Shown: piece after piece, positions 451 to 17,189 of the stretch | Position numbering within the stretch: the first letter of the stretch is position 1 | Layout of the letters: the number at the start of each line of letters is the position of its first letter | IMG/VR virus record: IMGVR_UViG_3300030329_004782 | Coordinates: 1-20,573 of that record | DNA: 20,573 bases | Reading direction: 5' to 3' (one strand) | DNA from: a virus | Translations under genes and position numbers: made by a program | Notes under the pieces: model-generated | The model's database searches: none | Seen by the model: only the letters and a program-made list of their open reading frames with translations | What the model was told of the DNA's origin: nothing

Positions 451-810
451 ATGAAAATAAACACAACATTAAGAATAGAAAGTGATGCTATTCAATATTA
501 CAAAGACAAATATAGGACAAATCATGCGGGATGTGTACTTGCGGTAGAAAGTTTTCCCTATCTAAGAGAAGAGTCATTAAAGCTATTAGAGGGTAAATTT
601 ACAGAAGAAGAGCTTGATTATCTTAAAAAAGCTAGTCCAAGCAAGATATCTTCTAAAGATATGGCATCTAGGAGACATTGGGAAGCAGAAATAGGGGATT
701 ATTATGAAAGTGGAAATGATGAATCTGTTCATTTTGCTACACTTATTGCTAAAATAAGAGAATTATCTCCACTTGAAAGATTTACTTTAAGAGAATTGGT
801 TATATCTTAA
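451..810 (+). CDS. Hypothetical early protein (119 aa)
   Basis: I do not recognise a family. The ATG follows AGGGGG about 10 bases upstream. The product is a soluble, predominantly helical, acidic protein. It has an N-terminal strand-like start (MKINTTLRIES), a GKFTEEELDYLKKA helix and a C-terminal LSPLERFTLRELVIS helix. There are no catalytic motifs or membrane segments. It is the largest product of the leftmost cluster and is separated from its neighbours by a candidate promoter upstream and the structured noncoding stretch downstream. It may be an early host-takeover or counter-defence protein, but that is inferred from position alone. Confidence 0.7.
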   Translation: MKINTTLRIESDAIQYYKDKYRTNHAGCVLAVESFPYLREESLKLLEGKFTEEELDYLKKASPSKISSKDMASRRHWEAEIGDYYESGNDESVHFATLIAKIRELSPLERFTLRELVIS

Positions 811-931
811 TCGTTAATTATAAAATTGAGAGAGTTTCAGGGGCAATAAAAACCTAACGGACCCTACGAGAAGTCAAGGATATCCAGAAGCAACGCTCTT
901 CAACTCAAGCAATGGTTCTCTCTCATAATTA

Positions 932-1016
932 TTAGGGGATATTGACAGACGAGTAAGCGTAGAGCGATAACACTATATGTGTAGGTCGTATGCACTAACG
1001 AGAGTCAAACCCCTAA
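932..1016 (+). other. Long interrupted hairpin within the noncoding stretch
   Basis: Five helices nest in order: TTAGGGG 932-938/CCCCTAA 1010-1016, TTGAC 942-946/GTCAA 1004-1008, GCGTA 957-961/TATGC 989-993 (one G-U pair), CGA 965-967/TCG 986-988 and ACAC 970-973/GTGT 979-982, closed by the loop TATAT. This gives 24 pairs in an 85-base arm. It could be an RNase III target, a cis-acting transcription element or part of a larger RNA. Confidence 0.5.
942..971 (+). promoter_or_regulatory. Alternative reading: promoter inside the hairpin arm
   Basis: TTGACA at 942-947 is a perfect -35 box, followed after 18 bases by GATAAC (4 of 6) at 966-971. If used, RNA would start near 978, giving the gene at 1099 a leader of about 120 bases that still contains hairpins at 1022-1042 and 1058-1075. 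The box shares bases with the hairpin helix, so the two readings compete, although both could be true on different transcripts. Confidence 0.3.
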
Positions 1017-1057
1017 ACATTAGGTAAATGTGATGTTTACCTTGTCGAAAAGAGAAC

Positions 1058-1075
1058 GGGAGTCTTCGGGCTCCC
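1058..1075 (+). other. UUCG-capped stable hairpin before the AbrB-like gene
   Basis: GGGAGTC and GGCTCCC form a 7-pair stem (one G-U pair) around a C(UUCG)G tetraloop, an exceptionally stable RNA cap. The hairpin ends 12 bases before the AAGGAG of the gene at 1099. No run of T follows, so it is not a normal intrinsic terminator. It may block 5' decay or act as a processing or translation-control element. Confidence 0.5.
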
Positions 1076-1098
1076 AGACTCTAAACTAAGGAGAGAAA

Positions 1099-1284
1099 AT
1101 GAAATACTATAAACACGTAACACTAAGAAGTACATCTGGAAATAAAATTAATCTACCTAAAGAGGCTTGGGCTAAACTAGGTTGGAAGTTAAATGACAAG
1201 CTTAGAATATCATTTGGATTTGATGGGCCTTATGATGGTGCAAACCCAGTAACTTTGTATATTGAAAAGGCAGATGATGAGTAA
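1099..1284 (+). CDS. AbrB/SpoVT-like swapped-hairpin protein (61 aa)
   Basis: This is probably a small DNA-binding regulator of the AbrB/MazE swapped-hairpin fold. Residues about 15-38 read KINLPKEAWAKLGWKLNDKL, which follows the family pattern of a beta strand, then (I/V)xLPKExxxxLGxxxGDxL, then a second strand (RISFGF). The C-terminal part is short and acidic. The ribosome binding site AAGGAG is excellent and is preceded by the structured leader region. No toxin gene follows, so a complete toxin-antitoxin pair is not apparent; a phage transcription regulator or an orphan antitoxin-like protein is more likely. The family call is by motif resemblance only. Confidence 0.6.
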   Translation: MKYYKHVTLRSTSGNKINLPKEAWAKLGWKLNDKLRISFGFDGPYDGANPVTLYIEKADDE

Positions 1285-10223: not shown

Positions 10224-13200
10224 CTAATTGGATTTTTTCCCGCTACCCATTCCAATATATCTTGTAACTCTGTCTAAATTTATTATATCTTTTTGATATT
10301 TTGTGAAATAACCATTCTTGATTGCATCACTTGCCCATGCATCCTCAATAGTATCCCAATCATCAAAATCTTTAAAAGCTTCATTCCATATATCTAAAAC
10401 TTTCTGAAAGTTTTTTCCTTCTCTTGAAACAGCTCCAGTCTTTGTTCTTGCTTGAATACTTCTGTAAAGAGAGTCACTCACTTTATTTAATTTAGCAAGT
10501 TTATATGCTGTATAATCTATAAGAAACTTATCTTTCTCGCTCATATCATCTGGATTTTTCCAATTTCCAGATTCATCCATTGCAACACCTATAAATTCAT
10601 TAAATAACTTTTTAGAAGCCCTACTAACAGTATTTGTCAATACTTCCATTGGCTTAAATCCATTTCTCTCTAAGGCATCAAATACTTCAGGAACAAATTT
10701 CTCTAGTTCTGGTTCAAAATTTTTAAATTTCTTTCCAAATATAGGCTCTAGTTTATCAGAACCATACTTATTTATAGCTCTTTGATATATACTTGGGTCA
10801 ATATATGATTCTATAACCTTATCCATTAGTTCTCTTCCCTCGTATCTTGTCATTCCTTTATGAACTGGGAGAGCCCATGCAAAACTATTTCCTTTTAACG
10901 AAAAGGGAACAAACCTTTCTGAAAATCCACTAGCCCATCCACTAGGACCTTCACCTCTCCATTCTGAGGGAAAATCTGATGTACTATAGCCTGTCACAAG
11001 TTCATACACATATCCTACCATCGGGGAAGACTTTCTTTTAAATGTATTAATGGGACCTGCAAACCCATCAAAATATCCTGCTATTTCTTTATACTGCTTA
11101 CCGAAGCTAGTATAATATCTTTGGTCTGTAGTCCACTCTTTCCCACTCGATTCAGCCAATGCTCTATATAATGGAGTTATATCAGCAGACCATTGCTCTC
11201 CAGTTTCATTCTCCCACATATATGGCTTATCCCCTTTTTCTTCATCTCCATATTTCTCATATATAGCAAGTTGTAGTAACTGTTGTGCTCCAAGAACAGA
11301 AAATATGATATTCTTCCAATAATTACTATAAAATTTACCTTTCATATTTCTAAATTTAGGGTCTTTAAATCTTGGGTCTCTTCCAATAAGTCCAAGTCCA
11401 TCTGCAACAGGTTTATATGCCATTGAAGCTGATGAAGTTGTCCAATCAGGAGCAAGTAATATTCTTGTTAACCATTTTTGAACTTTAGGATTACCAAGTA
11501 TTAATCTTGATTCCCATTCTTGACCACCAAAAGCATCATTAATAAGACTTGCAGTAAGTTCTTTTACCTCTGTAGAAGATAACTCTGGATATAAATCTAA
11601 AGATTTATTTACGACATCATTATAAGCAAATGCTTTTAGTCCTGAATGATAATGATTCCATAATCCTTTTTGAAATGCTATTATAGGATAATAAGCTGCT
11701 TGTATAGAATTTTTCCAAATAGGGCTATCAAACCAATCTTTAAACCCATCTCTTTGATTTATCCATGTACCAGTATGATTATCTAAGTTAGGATGCTCAA
11801 TTTGCAATCCATGCATTATCATATCTTCATAAAAAGCCTCATCTTTTATAAGCTCTAGTCCTACTCTGTATGGAGCTCTAAATAATTCAGTTTTGTTTGT
11901 TGTTGGATTCTTTTCACCAAACAAGAATATCCCTCTAATTGGATTTTTCCCAGCAAGAACAGCTTGCGAGCTTTCAGTAAGAGCTATATGATGGAAAAAA
12001 GACACTGATAATTGGAATGTCTTTTGTACAGCATTTACTTTATCATAAGCTTTCCCTATATTAATTAATCCTTCTGGACTCATATCATATTGATACTTCT
12101 TTAACATTTTTAATACAGGTAGAACATCTGGATGAACTCTAACCCCAAAACTTGTTGGCTGCACAAATCCATTTTCATCTTTTTTCCCAAAGATTCTATT
12201 TGCTAAAGGATGGTCAAATCTTACATAATTAGAAGGAGCTTTTTTATTGTCTGGAACAATCATTGGATTACCATCTATATCTGTAACCTTAGATAATTTA
12301 TCTAAAAACAATTTATTAGTAGCCATGCTCCAGTTAGTATTAATATATTTATTATATAATACAACAGGGTCTTGGCTTATAGGAACTAATCCAGCATCTT
12401 TAGCATCTTGTAATGTAGGTAATTTTCTTTTCTTTGCATTGGGACTATTCTTAATAATATCAATAGCGGGTCCAAAATCTTTTCCTTTGCCTGTAGTAAC
12501 ATAAAAGTGAGGTAAGTAATTTTCTAAAAATTGTATATATTCACCTTCAGCTCCTGTAGCTTCAGCTAAAAGTTCATTAATATCATTTCTAGTTTTTTCT
12601 ATTGCAATTTTATATTCCTTCTTTGCTTTTTCTTTAGCTGGAGTCATCCTACTTTTTACATCAACAATAGTATCCCCTTCAATCATTATATTGCCTATGC
12701 CTTCAATAGAAGCTCCTATATCAAATCTATCTAATTCATTAGGAACGGTCTTGGTCCACTCTGAGGCTACCATATTAGCCTTGCTGATTTCAAGTTTTCT
12801 TTTTCTAATTTTCTCTAAAAAGATTCTATGAGCTTTATCTTGTAGCATGTAAGTATCATTTAAGAAATCCAATTCATGCTTAGGGATTGATGTCCCCCCT
12901 TTAGATATTATATAATCTATTTGTTCTAAATCTGCGTCAGTAAAAGGTTTTTTCTTTCCAGCTTTATACTTATTCTCAAGCAATTTAAATAAATGTATAA
13001 TTGGAGGAGGAATCATAGAGCTATATAATTGTCCGTATACTTCATGAGATACAGATAAGCCTTCATCTTCTAATTGTTTCTTTAGTTTTTTAGCAATTTT
13101 CAATCTTTTATCTAAATTGGATATATCACGCTTAGTTCTACCAAATGGATTCTTTTTAGCAAATACTATCTGTTTTTGAGTATCAGATATAGTTTTATTT

Positions 13201-16200
13201 AATCTAAGAATAGTATCTTTTTTTACTTCTATTTGATACACTTTTTCATCTCTTAATATTTTAGCTTTTTCATTTTTATATAATTTTAAATCTGAATTTT
13301 CTTTAGATGTTCTATTCTTCTTCCCCTCAAGTGCAGTTATTTTACTATCTACAATATTCAATTTCCCTTTAAATGAACGAGCTGATTCAGCTATATCCTT
13401 CTCTGCAGAAAGTATTTCGTCTTTATCTTTTTTAATCTTCCCTCTAATATTACTTTGAACTCTCCGAATCTGCCCTAATTTTATTCGCTCTTCTGCGGTA
13501 ATAGTCTTATTAAATTCTTTCTTATTTAAATCTGATACCATTTTATCAAGCTCAAGAAGCTTATCAGGTAATGTTTCAGCTTTAACTTCTCCAGTTTTCT
13601 TTTCAGGGGGTTTAGGTTTAGTCTTTTTAGGTTTGACTATAGTAGGTTTAGAGACTGGGGGTTTTTCAGGATAAATAACACTTCCAAATTTAGCATTATC
13701 AAATCCCTCTATGCCTCTCATATCTATACCATCATAACCTAGTCTTCTCATAAGTCTTGTTGAAGCTGTTTCTGTATTGAGCCCTCCGAAACCATCATTA
13801 GCCTCTATCTCTGCTCTAACCTCTTGGATGACCTCATCTACGATTTTTGGTGAGGCTTTTAATCCTGTCCAATACTCTAGACGCTTTGATATTCCAGTTG
13901 GATTATCTCTCCAACTGATGGAGTTTGGATTGTTTTTAGCATCATAATCTCCTAGTCTATAGGATGCCTCATTTATATATCTCAAAATCCAATGAAGTTC
14001 GTTTGCCATTCCGAAATTACCGCCTGCAGGTATAATTTCTGTTAAAGGACTTCCATCTTTCTTCTTACCAACAACTCTTGTCATGTCAAAGGGTCTAAAT
14101 AAATTCTTACCCTCTAAATTTATTACTGTTATTGGTCTGTCTCCACCCTCACGACTTTTTGCGTGTTTTTTAGCATCTTTCTTGCTTCCAAAAAAATATG
14201 TTCCAGAACCGAAATGTCCAGTTTCTCTACCAAACATCATATTTATATTATCTTTTTTAGATACTCCTTTGCCTGATTGATATCCTACATTAACTTTAGG
14301 TTCTACTTTAGGTTTGGCTGTAGCAGGGACCTCTTTCTTGGCTTCAGATAGTTTTTTTCGATATTCAGAAAAGCTGCCTATATCTAGTCTGTCTAAAAGA
14401 TTGCTTAATTCTGTTTTAGCATCCTTTTTATTTCCTTTTACTTTACCATCTATAATACTTAAAAACTTTTCACCTTCTAATAGGTTGCTAAATTCTGTTG
14501 CCTCTATAGGAGCTTTAGGAGTTATTTTAGAAGGTTTAGAGACTGGGGGTTTTTCAGGATAAATAACACTTCCATAAGAAGCATTATCTAACCCCTTTAT
14601 TCCTCTAACATCAATACCATCATATCCTGCTTTTCTCATAACTCTAGTTGAAGCTGATTCTATATTAATATTAGGGTCAGAAGTTATTTTTTTCCTTTCA
14701 TTAAAATTATATTTTTCATTAAATGCTTTTATATCTTTTTTAGTTTCTAAAATAATTCGCTGCACATCTTTTTTAGTAACCTTTACTCCTATATCATTTA
14801 ACTGTGTAACTATTTTATCTATTGTCAAACCAGGAGTACGACCTCCCTGAGCTCTGCTATTTATAGCTTTAAGTACATCGTGAAGTTCTATACCAGCTTC
14901 TCTTTGTGATATTTTCATTGGGGTAGGAGGGTCACCTTTTTTCTCTCCTGGTATTTTTGCCGTACTAGATGTATACTCTTCTGGTCTAAATAGATTTTTC
15001 CCAGTTACATCAATTTCTGTTACTTGTCTATCTTTTTTATAGGATTTTGCAGCATCTTTCCCTCCAAAAAAATATTCACCAGTACCAAAATGACCAGTTC
15101 CATGACCTCCATATCCAATACTTTCTGAAATTTCACCTCTCTCACCACTCCTATATCCTACATTCTCTTTAGGTTCTACTTTAGGCTCTAGTTTAGTGTC
15201 TTTAGCTTTAGTTTCTTTAGGTCTAGGCTCTTTTCTAATTTTAACAATAGATAATCTTTCTACAGGAATGTCAAGCTCGTACTCCATTTTCTTTGCCCAT
15301 GCTATAGCATCATTAATACTTTCAAAAGAATATATTTCCCCTTCACCATATTTTTTTCCAGTAGCTTGTTGCCTCCAAAGTCTTCTATCGGGACTAGATG
15401 GTTTTATTCCTTCTTTTTTTATTGTTTCTCCCGCAAATGTAACATGATAAACTACCCCCTTCTCTGATTTATGCTTAGGAGATTCTTGCATTTTCACAAC
15501 CCTTCTCCCATCTTTATATGTAGGAGAAGTTTTTGGAATTAACTCTTCAAGACTTACTACTTCTATAATATCTTCAGCAGGTATTTTCTGATTCTTATCT
15601 TTTGTTCTATACCATTTTCCTTCATTTGGTCCCATTGCACTTCTTTGAATTGGGGTGCCATCAACAATATCAATATCTTCTTCCCAAATACTATCTTTAT
15701 CTTTCTTGGTTTCTTTAGGTTTAGTTACTTTAGTTTCTACTTTAGGTTTAGTAGGAACTTCCTCTAGTGGTTTTTCTACAGAAGGTGGTTTTGCAATAAT
15801 GCCTTTATCTATTAACGAGATTTCTGCAAATGATGATAATGCGATTTGAGCTTCCTGTAAAGTTGGATATACCTCAGCATCTATAACTTTATTATTTTTA
15901 TCAATAACTTGAACAACATGATTTTCGCCCACCTCTTCTATAGTTACTTCCTTGACCTTATCGGGATTAATAGCCTTCTTATGAGATTCTTTTTTAGATA
16001 AATCAAGAACTTTTGGTTCTACTGTAGGTTCTACTACAGGGTCTACCTTTGTTTCTTTCGCAGCTTTCTTTCCTTCTTTTAAAAGAGGAGGTTCTACAAC
16101 TTCAAACTCAGCCCACTCCGCTACCTCTCTAATCAGTCTTTCTTTAGAGCTTTCAACTACATTTTTCATATTATCAGGAATGCCCCACTTTTTCATGAAT

Positions 16201-17189
16201 TTTTCAGTAGACATCCCTCTAATAACAATATCATCAATCATTATATCCTGAAAATACTTGCTATGAAATTGCTTATCACTCCATTTATGTATAGTTAAGG
16301 ACTTCCCGTTTATTTTATTTTGCTTATAAGTATTATATTTAGCCCTAGCAGGACTAATGAGAAATGGAGCTCCACCTAATAACGATTGTGTAGCAGCTCC
16401 TGCTACTGGGCTCCCTGTTACATCATAAACTTTATCTCCAATGAATTTTACCCCCTGCATGTAATATTCCCATGGCAATGTTATAATTCTGACACCTAAA
16501 TCACCACTTTCTGTCCTTGGAATATATGTCATTTTTTCTTGTAATTCTGCAATCCATTCTTCTTGTAAATTTGGGTCTATCCCTTCTATAAGTCCAATAT
16601 TAGCAAGAACTCTCTCAGTTCCACCTATAATACCAGAACTTCCCCATCCAATCATCCCAGTCCCTATAGATAATGGAATCTCCACTAGACCACCAATAGC
16701 ATCTAAAAATGGGTCTGGTGAAGCTCCAGGAACATCTGCCACTTTCAATGATGTGGCCACTTCTTCTGTTGGAGATATTTTATCTAAAATGCTTCTATCA
16801 ACTACTCCTTCAGACTTTATTAAATTGTCTGATTTTATTAAATCATCTGGAAGTTCAATAGGTTGGGATACTTCTTCTATTATACCATTCTTATTATTAC
16901 TAACAAGCTCAATCTCTTTATTTAGCAAATCTTCTGCAGGAGTTTCTACTATATTATTATATTGATTTTCTTCGGTATCTAAAGGGATTTTTATTTTTTC
17001 AGAAAAAAAAGCAGAATCTCCCAATACATCTTCTCCATGTCTATCTACAAGAAGTTTTCGTATTTGCTCTGCATTTGCAGGATTTTGCATTTTATTCTTG
17101 AATTTTTCATAGTCCCCAAATTCTGAAGAGTATTGGGGATAAGCCTCATTCACTGTATCATAAATAAGCTTTAAATTAGTTTCACTCAT
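10224..17189 (-). CDS. Giant polyvalent virion protein with three ART-like segments (2,321 aa)
   Basis: This is probably an internal virion protein ejected with the DNA. Residues 1-150 are hydrophilic. Residues about 163-190 and 260-283 are glycine-rich hydrophobic segments that may enter membranes. Proline/lysine/glutamate linkers (PKVEPK-type) separate modules. Residues 578-652 (VVYHVTF through the AIAWAKKM helix), 676-880 and 967-1176 resemble ADP-ribosyltransferase folds of phage polyvalent proteins; the last two are diverged duplicates (TGHFG(T/S)GxYFFG and GYDGIDxRG). Residues 1200-1375 are coiled coil. Residues 1380-2321 form one large helical region with NYLPHFY (1558) and LLAPDWTTSS (1911), reminiscent of large-polyvalent-protein domains such as LPD38. 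No lytic transglycosylase or polymerase motif was seen. No strong ribosome binding site precedes the ATG. Roles are inference. Confidence 0.75.
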   Translation of the reverse strand: MSETNLKLIYDTVNEAYPQYSSEFGDYEKFKNKMQNPANAEQIRKLLVDRHGEDVLGDSAFFSEKIKIPLDTEENQYNNIVETPAEDLLNKEIELVSNNKNGIIEEVSQPIELPDDLIKSDNLIKSEGVVDRSILDKISPTEEVATSLKVADVPGASPDPFLDAIGGLVEIPLSIGTGMIGWGSSGIIGGTERVLANIGLIEGIDPNLQEEWIAELQEKMTYIPRTESGDLGVRIITLPWEYYMQGVKFIGDKVYDVTGSPVAGAATQSLLGGAPFLISPARAKYNTYKQNKINGKSLTIHKWSDKQFHSKYFQDIMIDDIVIRGMSTEKFMKKWGIPDNMKNVVESSKERLIREVAEWAEFEVVEPPLLKEGKKAAKETKVDPVVEPTVEPKVLDLSKKESHKKAINPDKVKEVTIEEVGENHVVQVIDKNNKVIDAEVYPTLQEAQIALSSFAEISLIDKGIIAKPPSVEKPLEEVPTKPKVETKVTKPKETKKDKDSIWEEDIDIVDGTPIQRSAMGPNEGKWYRTKDKNQKIPAEDIIEVVSLEELIPKTSPTYKDGRRVVKMQESPKHKSEKGVVYHVTFAGETIKKEGIKPSSPDRRLWRQQATGKKYGEGEIYSFESINDAIAWAKKMEYELDIPVERLSIVKIRKEPRPKETKAKDTKLEPKVEPKENVGYRSGERGEISESIGYGGHGTGHFGTGEYFFGGKDAAKSYKKDRQVTEIDVTGKNLFRPEEYTSSTAKIPGEKKGDPPTPMKISQREAGIELHDVLKAINSRAQGGRTPGLTIDKIVTQLNDIGVKVTKKDVQRIILETKKDIKAFNEKYNFNERKKITSDPNINIESASTRVMRKAGYDGIDVRGIKGLDNASYGSVIYPEKPPVSKPSKITPKAPIEATEFSNLLEGEKFLSIIDGKVKGNKKDAKTELSNLLDRLDIGSFSEYRKKLSEAKKEVPATAKPKVEPKVNVGYQSGKGVSKKDNINMMFGRETGHFGSGTYFFGSKKDAKKHAKSREGGDRPITVINLEGKNLFRPFDMTRVVGKKKDGSPLTEIIPAGGNFGMANELHWILRYINEASYRLGDYDAKNNPNSISWRDNPTGISKRLEYWTGLKASPKIVDEVIQEVRAEIEANDGFGGLNTETASTRLMRRLGYDGIDMRGIEGFDNAKFGSVIYPEKPPVSKPTIVKPKKTKPKPPEKKTGEVKAETLPDKLLELDKMVSDLNKKEFNKTITAEERIKLGQIRRVQSNIRGKIKKDKDEILSAEKDIAESARSFKGKLNIVDSKITALEGKKNRTSKENSDLKLYKNEKAKILRDEKVYQIEVKKDTILRLNKTISDTQKQIVFAKKNPFGRTKRDISNLDKRLKIAKKLKKQLEDEGLSVSHEVYGQLYSSMIPPPIIHLFKLLENKYKAGKKKPFTDADLEQIDYIISKGGTSIPKHELDFLNDTYMLQDKAHRIFLEKIRKRKLEISKANMVASEWTKTVPNELDRFDIGASIEGIGNIMIEGDTIVDVKSRMTPAKEKAKKEYKIAIEKTRNDINELLAEATGAEGEYIQFLENYLPHFYVTTGKGKDFGPAIDIIKNSPNAKKRKLPTLQDAKDAGLVPISQDPVVLYNKYINTNWSMATNKLFLDKLSKVTDIDGNPMIVPDNKKAPSNYVRFDHPLANRIFGKKDENGFVQPTSFGVRVHPDVLPVLKMLKKYQYDMSPEGLINIGKAYDKVNAVQKTFQLSVSFFHHIALTESSQAVLAGKNPIRGIFLFGEKNPTTNKTELFRAPYRVGLELIKDEAFYEDMIMHGLQIEHPNLDNHTGTWINQRDGFKDWFDSPIWKNSIQAAYYPIIAFQKGLWNHYHSGLKAFAYNDVVNKSLDLYPELSSTEVKELTASLINDAFGGQEWESRLILGNPKVQKWLTRILLAPDWTTSSASMAYKPVADGLGLIGRDPRFKDPKFRNMKGKFYSNYWKNIIFSVLGAQQLLQLAIYEKYGDEEKGDKPYMWENETGEQWSADITPLYRALAESSGKEWTTDQRYYTSFGKQYKEIAGYFDGFAGPINTFKRKSSPMVGYVYELVTGYSTSDFPSEWRGEGPSGWASGFSERFVPFSLKGNSFAWALPVHKGMTRYEGRELMDKVIESYIDPSIYQRAINKYGSDKLEPIFGKKFKNFEPELEKFVPEVFDALERNGFKPMEVLTNTVSRASKKLFNEFIGVAMDESGNWKNPDDMSEKDKFLIDYTAYKLAKLNKVSDSLYRSIQARTKTGAVSREGKNFQKVLDIWNEAFKDFDDWDTIEDAWASDAIKNGYFTKYQKDIINLDRVTRYIGMGSGKKSN
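13644..13686 (-). repeat. 43-bp perfect direct repeat, copy 1
   Basis: It is identical base for base to 14532-14574, with both copies on the same strand and in the same reading frame. It encodes the GSVIYPEKPPVSKP end of ART-like copy B and the start of its linker. Identity at every third codon position indicates recent duplication or gene conversion. Confidence 0.9.
13662..14291 (-). repeat. ART-like domain copy B (residues 967-1176 of the giant protein)
   Basis: This is the second of two duplicated modules. It begins NVGYQSGKG, carries TGHFGSGTYFFGSKKDAKKHA at 990-1010 and NLFRP at 1029-1033, and ends with STRLMRRLGYDGIDMRGIEG and FGSVIYPEKPPVSKP. Conserved blocks align one-to-one with copy A, while the middle 100 residues have diverged. 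Confidence 0.6.
14532..14574 (-). repeat. 43-bp perfect direct repeat, copy 2
   Basis: This copy lies 888 bp (296 codons) from copy 1 and encodes the same GSVIYPEKPPVSKP segment at the end of ART-like copy A. Flanking bases differ immediately on both sides. Confidence 0.9.
14550..15164 (-). repeat. ART-like domain copy A (residues 676-880 of the giant protein)
   Basis: This first copy starts NVGYRSGERG, carries TGHFGTGEYFFGGKDAAKSY at 698-717 and NLFRP at 732-736, and ends STRVMRKAGYDGIDVRGIKG and YGSVIYPEKPPVSKP. In many related ART domains the terminal motif is EYVVFxP with a catalytic Glu; here both copies read GSVIYPEK, so catalysis is doubtful. Confidence 0.6.

What the first reader, a model, noticed from the sequence alone, without database searches (positions are those of the whole stretch)
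814..1081. Multi-domain structured RNA region between two early genes
A 288-base gap in an otherwise overlapping gene cluster is less AT-rich than its surroundings and contains at least four complementary segments in series, including an 85-base arm with five nested helices and a UUCG-capped hairpin. It matches none of the RNA classes I know. It could be a free phage RNA, a leader controlling the AbrB-like gene, or a cis-acting element on the early transcript, in the way PUT RNAs act in phage HK022.
Basis: partly seen in the sequence, partly recalled or inferred. Interest (0 to 1): 0.65.

Follow-up and report, generated by a model that had tools for sequence, protein, structure and literature searches.

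The report
Mix-and-match structured RNAs in phages
The gap between two early phage genes is a chain of folded RNA pieces, and well over a hundred other viral DNA fragments carry the same conserved RNA frames with interchangeable end-domains slotted into them, a modular RNA system absent from the RNA database searched here; what it does is not yet known.

Summary
Gap 811-1098 folds better than shuffles (z -3.0; its 85-base arm z -4.6) and matches no Rfam family. In related uncultured viruses the gap is a mosaic of RNA 'frames': invariant internal-loop cores with covarying outer stems, each holding an apical 'plug-in' that differs between phages. The 85-base arm (frame B) recurs in 42 other viral contigs: 27 invariant columns in 38 sequences, 99 compensatory cells against 36 in shuffles, 40 different plug-ins. 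Frame F occurs in over 100 contigs; frame C forms the window's last two hairpins. The same plug-ins sit in different frames between non-homologous flanks (30 cross-frame pairs; none in shuffles). Elements lie in sense orientation between genes, on the strand opposite the late genes where these are known. Frame B is usually single-copy and neighbouring genes vary. RNA structure and module exchange are shown here. Function is inferred: I favour early trans-acting RNAs whose frame docks on a common, probably host, factor and whose plug-in is the variable effector; cis-acting intercistronic elements are the main rival. A leader for the AbrB-like gene is not supported.

The parts
811..1098 (+). Whole intercistronic gap: four structured modules in series, from the stop of ORF 451-810 to the start codon of ORF 1099-1284
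   Evidence: z -3.0
827..924 (+). Frame A: stem GAGAGAG 828-834 / CTCTCTC 918-924. Conserved frame parts 827-872 and 901-924; inner plug-in about 873-900
   Evidence: L174 homologue, 87% over 102 nt, with a different inner part; exact core in one other viral contig only; weak folding energy
932..1016 (+). Frame B (the 85-base arm): P1 932-938 / 1010-1016, core strands 939-953 and 995-1009
   Evidence: 42 viral contigs; covariation; z -4.6
954..994 (+). Plug-in of frame B (41 nt apical domain), identical in frame B of L040, whose flanks are not homologous to the window's
1022..1042 (+). Frame C, first hairpin (AGGUAAAU...GUUUACCU); other phages carry longer inserts between AGGUAA and the 3' arm
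1043..1056 (+). Frame C conserved strand TGTCGAAAAGAGAA between the two hairpins
1051..1082 (+). Frame C, second hairpin with UUCG loop (outer AGAG/CUCU, inner GGGAGUC/GGCUCCC). In other phages the UUCG cap is replaced by larger plug-ins, in L036 by the whole of frame F
1088..1093 (+). Shine-Dalgarno-like AAGGAG of the next gene, just after the last hairpin and not part of it
   Evidence: sequence; fold of the hairpin
451..810 (+). Upstream gene (119 aa, no known family)
1099..1284 (+). Downstream gene (61 aa, AbrB-like by eye only; no Pfam or PHROG match)

Best explanation
SHOWN: the gap encodes RNA elements of a modular family that uncultured phages carry in sense orientation between genes; where the late genes are in the record, the elements lie on the opposite (early/replication) strand. 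Each element is a frame (covarying outer stem plus invariant internal-loop core) holding an interchangeable apical plug-in, and plug-ins are shared between unrelated frames and non-homologous contexts. INFERRED: the elements act mainly as RNAs in trans early in infection. They would be cut from, or stay exposed on, the early polycistronic transcript. The invariant frame would dock on a constant host (or common phage) factor, and the plug-in would be the variable effector or decoy domain, renewed by recombination between phages of the same host. The confidence given is for the functional part; the modular-RNA part alone I put at about 0.9.
For: RNA: on 38 frame-B sequences 6 of 7 P1 pairs change on both sides, 99 compensatory cells against 36.5 +/- 6.1 in shuffles, slid structures 30-44% paired against 90.9%. 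On 111 frame-F sequences the ten P1 pairs form in 92-111 of 111, with G-U pairs among the variants. Frame-B plug-in lengths spread over all three phases (18/15/14), so the element is not coding. Plug-ins: 30 cross-frame pairs share at least 16 nt at 85% or more, 0 in shuffles; flanks of 11 of 12 plug-sharing pairs checked show no blastn similarity, the twelfth only a 36-nt match on one side. Shared gap segments are mostly same-sense: 521 local pairs on plus, 93 on minus, 2 and 1 in shuffles. Trans rather than gene-specific: neighbours in 107 families; frame-B 3' core single in 24 of 25 records that have it. Early: 22 of 22 frame-B and 9 of 9 frame-C elements in records with TerL are on the strand opposite TerL. 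Shared partner: frame C also occurs in G024 and G029, which share few or no protein families with most other records.
Against: No transcript, processing site, promoter or partner has been seen. Elements fit tightly between a stop codon and the next start (frame F median 16 and 17 nt), which also suits a cis role. Plug-in/target complementarity was not examined. Hosts are unknown, so a host factor is a guess.
Confidence: 0.4

Rival explanations
1. Cis-acting intercistronic mRNA elements: compact folds between cistrons of the early transcript that block ribosome run-through or exonucleases and so set stability or translation of neighbouring genes; plug-ins are tolerated as any stable cap.
For: Upstream neighbour on the same strand in 40/40 (B) and 97/103 (F), downstream in 38/44 and 101/105; median 16 and 17 nt to the flanking stop and start for F. 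A plain UUCG loop can stand in place of a plug-in in frame C.
Against: Frame B is usually single per record and its core is nearly invariant, more than a generic barrier needs. Plug-ins keep sequence, not only stability, when they occur in different frames. Neighbouring genes differ widely.
Confidence: 0.3
2. Ligand-binding aptamers (riboswitch-like, or sponges for a metabolite or second messenger): the invariant internal loops are the binding pocket, outer stem and apical domain are variable as in riboswitches.
For: Invariant internal-loop nucleotides between covarying stems.
Against: No terminator-like site on the + strand at the gap, no constant downstream gene family, plug-ins conserved and exchanged rather than free to drift.
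Confidence: 0.12
3. put-like antitermination signals on the early transcript that modify RNA polymerase.
For: Early strand only; in records with both, the first frame B precedes frame F in transcription order.
Against: Lies inside an operon between genes; several unrelated frames per genome; no terminators identified that would need to be read through.
Confidence: 0.08
4. DNA-level element: recombination hot spot, origin or protein-binding palindrome.
For: Short conserved segments flank the exchanged inserts; a Sak-type annealing protein is encoded nearby.
Against: G-U pairs among P1 variants, internal-loop conservation, sense-strand bias.
Confidence: 0.05
5. Chance folding of a relatively GC-rich spacer.
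For: First domain alone z -0.9.
Against: Whole gap 0 of 200 shuffles; arm z -4.6; covariation.
Confidence: 0.01

Closest known systems
GOLLD and ROOL ornate RNAs (PMC12286853)
   Same: Structured RNAs of unknown function encoded in phages and prophages; GOLLD has a universally conserved 3' region beside a less conserved 5' region.
   Different: Those are very large and often lie near tRNA islands; these are about 50-290 nt, lie between early protein genes, match no Rfam model, and share apical domains between unrelated frames.
put RNA of phage HK022 (own knowledge; no paper found)
   Same: Structured RNA on a phage early transcript.
   Different: put is two adjacent stem-loops near an early promoter; these are several unrelated frames inside an operon with exchangeable inserts. 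Activity untested.
Bacterial Y RNAs with Ro60/Rsr (own knowledge)
   Same: A conserved protein-binding stem with a variable effector module.
   Different: No TROVE/Ro60 gene in any of 30 records; a host-encoded Ro60 cannot be excluded.
REP/BIME mosaic elements of enterobacteria (own knowledge)
   Same: Intergenic, mosaic, transcribed hairpins.
   Different: BIMEs are many copies per genome of palindromic units; here frame B is usually single-copy and plug-ins are diverse.

Membership tests
Any Rfam 15 family | Covariance-model match at gathering score | tested here: not met
   None in the window, none in 137 kb of related loci, none in four element-bearing loci
GOLLD / ROOL | Match to the family's covariance model | tested here: not met
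   cmscan against all 4227 Rfam families
Y RNA / Ro60 | Ro60 (TROVE, PF05731) partner in the same genome | tested here: not met
   0 of 30 records; the control genome rings. A host gene was not testable
Riboswitch | Conserved core upstream of one functional class of genes | tested here: not met
   107 neighbour families
Riboswitch | Ligand-induced structural change | not testable with these tools
   needs in-line probing or SHAPE
put-like antiterminator | Located on early transcripts | tested here: met
   22 of 22 frame-B elements opposite to the TerL strand; early timing itself is inferred
put-like antiterminator | Antitermination activity | not testable with these tools
   reporter assay needed
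REP/BIME | Many copies per genome | tested here: not met
   frame-B core once in 24 of 25 positive records
Modular frame + plug-in RNA family (defined here) | Same plug-in in different frames with non-homologous flanks | tested here: met

The most novel reading that the evidence does not exclude
A large group of uncultured phages uses a combinatorial RNA toolkit: standard docking frames loaded with exchangeable RNA effector domains, traded between phages, to act on the host early in infection.
Probability: 0.35. Interest if true: 0.93.

Novelty: categorically new. Interest (0 to 1): 0.8.

Why it matters
At least three RNA families outside Rfam occur in well over a hundred environmental phage contigs, and they share swappable domains in a way usually seen in proteins. 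If the plug-ins are effectors, they are a library of natural RNA domains evolved against bacterial targets, held in natural scaffolds that tolerate inserts. If they act in cis, they are an unusual kind of mRNA element. Either way the comparative data make direct tests possible.

Tried and rejected
Rfam at gathering and permissive thresholds: only chance-level hits. tRNA/tmRNA: none. Close DNA relatives among annotated phages: none; frames B and F in annotated phages: only chance matches with E of 3 or more. Frame B in genomes of 84,980 species: none. Frame F there: 12 exact 18-mer hits, of which only one (L261, from a Flavobacteriales MAG contig) is a real frame, in DNA 98-99% identical to viral contig L185, so the host hint is weak. 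The Ro60/Y-RNA idea was rejected for the phages themselves. Literature searches found no description of such modules, but that library is incomplete. Gene calling was a simple ORF heuristic, so neighbour counts are approximate. A regex frame-F hit on the late strand of G015 (3625) was not examined and is probably spurious.

Full report
OBSERVATION. The window is an IMG/VR virus record of 20,573 bases. The gap 811-1098 lies between two + strand ORFs in a tightly packed gene cluster with a Sak-type annealing protein, a DnaD-like replication protein and a resolvase downstream. It is less AT-rich than its surroundings, folds with z -3.0 on the gene strand and z -1.9 on the other, and matches no Rfam family. 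Taken singly, the 85-base arm has z -4.6, the UUCG hairpin -3.3, the small hairpin -2.1 and the first domain -0.9.

A MOSAIC IN RELATIVES. Six viral contigs encode close relatives of a flanking gene. Their coding regions align with the window at about 69-96% DNA identity, but the gaps do not align end to end; they share separate pieces. L002 has the 85-base arm and the last two hairpins with other inserts. L003 and L007 have only the last part. L004 and L005 have the arm elsewhere, upstream of another small gene. The gene after the element changes too: a sigma-like gene in L002, a 91-aa gene in L003, the AbrB-like gene in L006 and L007.

FRAME B. A pattern for the arm's two conserved strands found 42 other viral contigs. 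The consensus is P1-AUA-UUGAC-AGG-CGAG-[plug-in]-CUAACGAGGGUCAA-G-P1'. In 38 ungapped sequences 27 columns are invariant while the outer stem varies: P1 is 92.5% paired, six of its seven pairs change on both sides, 99 cells are compensatory against 36.5 +/- 6.1 in shuffles, and sliding the partner drops pairing from 90.9% to 30-44%. Nine elements with a different outer joint or a too short plug-in were left out of that test. Among 47 distinct elements there are 40 different plug-ins of 10-55 nt, in all three length phases. The window's copy departs from consensus at three core positions, all G to A: 949, 1003 and 1009 (sequence). In L236, L246 and L250 an identical outer stem holds three different plug-ins.

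In 111 distinct elements the ten P1 pairs form in 92-111 of 111, with A-U, U-A, G-C and G-U exchange. About a fifth carry an extra arm at one junction. Frame C is the window's last two hairpins joined by YGUCGAAAAGAGAA; its second hairpin carries a UUCG loop here and larger inserts elsewhere, in L036 the whole of frame F. Frame A, the first domain, has one homologue, L174, 87% identical over 102 nt with a different centre.

PLUG-INS OCCUR IN DIFFERENT FRAMES. Among 171 plug-ins from frames B, F and C, 30 cross-frame pairs share at least 16 nt at 85% or more, and none do after shuffling. One plug-in (core CUCAUGGGCAAGUCCCRUGGACGA) was scanned across viral contigs and appears in frames B, F and several other contexts in 14 contigs. 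The window's 41-nt plug-in is identical in L040. Flanks of 12 plug-sharing pairs were compared: eleven show no similarity on either side and one shows only a 36-nt match on one side. Another plug-in, GGU-G-GUGUUC-ACC-GAACAC, reads as an H-type pseudoknot whose loop helix stays complementary in four sequence versions (pairing worked out by eye). Over all gaps, shared local segments are mostly same-sense, 521 pairs against 93, with 2 and 1 in shuffles. Same-strand gaps of 150-400 bases fold better (mean z -1.58) than their opposite strand (-1.12) or coding stretches (-0.67).

GENOME CONTEXT. In 25 of 30 fetched records the frame-B 3' core occurs, once in 24 and twice in one. In the 21 records that hold TerL and a full frame B, all 22 frame-B elements lie on the strand opposite TerL-portal-MCP, as do all nine frame-C elements in records with TerL. 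Upstream neighbours are co-directional in 40/40 frame-B and 97/103 frame-F cases; neighbours fall into 107 protein families. Most records share TerL, portal and capsid families; G024 and G029 carry frame C but share few or no families with most of the others. No close cultured relative was found: TerL is about 27% identical to its best matches in annotated phages.

INTERPRETATION. Modular RNA with domain exchange is shown by the comparative data. The function is not. A gene-specific leader is disfavoured by the varied neighbours, a multi-copy mRNA signal by single-copy frame B, and a DNA element by G-U pairing and strand bias. Frames that cross phage lineages suggest a partner common to those lineages, plausibly a host factor; conserved but interchangeable plug-ins suggest variable effectors. 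I give trans-acting early RNAs 0.4 and cis-acting intercistronic elements 0.3. How plug-ins cross between frames without flanking homology is unexplained; short-homology annealing by Sak-type proteins could explain exchange within one frame only.

NOVELTY. No Rfam family, annotated phage or paper found here describes these frames. The literature library is partial, and the rating 'categorically new' rests on the exchange architecture, not on a proven mechanism; if the cis rival is right, 'new variant of a known kind' would be fairer. GOLLD and ROOL are the nearest kin in spirit (PMC12286853).

Noticed in passing
L002:3235-3929: A sigma-factor-like ORF stands where the window has the AbrB-like gene; the first 29 bases of the AbrB-like gene survive near its end as a remnant (L002 3901-3929).
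   Followed up: partly
L013, L018, L045 upstream of frame B: Another recurrent element, GGTTTGCCGACCAATCGGGTTTACCCCCGTATACCCAGGG, looks like a further frame.
   Followed up: no
L005, L021, L044 near frame B: Recurrent element GTRAGGTGRACAATATATCCTTAAYGRCCCGTTATTGTG next to frame B.
   Followed up: no
L017, L019, L023, L035, L042, L046: A plug-in that reads as an H-type pseudoknot, GGU-G-(6 nt)-ACC-(6 nt), with a covarying loop helix.
   Followed up: partly
L261: Phage-like contig from a Flavobacteriales MAG carries a real frame F, a weak hint of the host.
   Followed up: partly
window 10224-17189 (-): 2321-aa protein with two similar blocks (GYRSGERG..GTGHFGTGEYFFG and GYQSGKGV..ETGHFGSGTYFFG), probably a polyvalent virion protein.
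   Followed up: no
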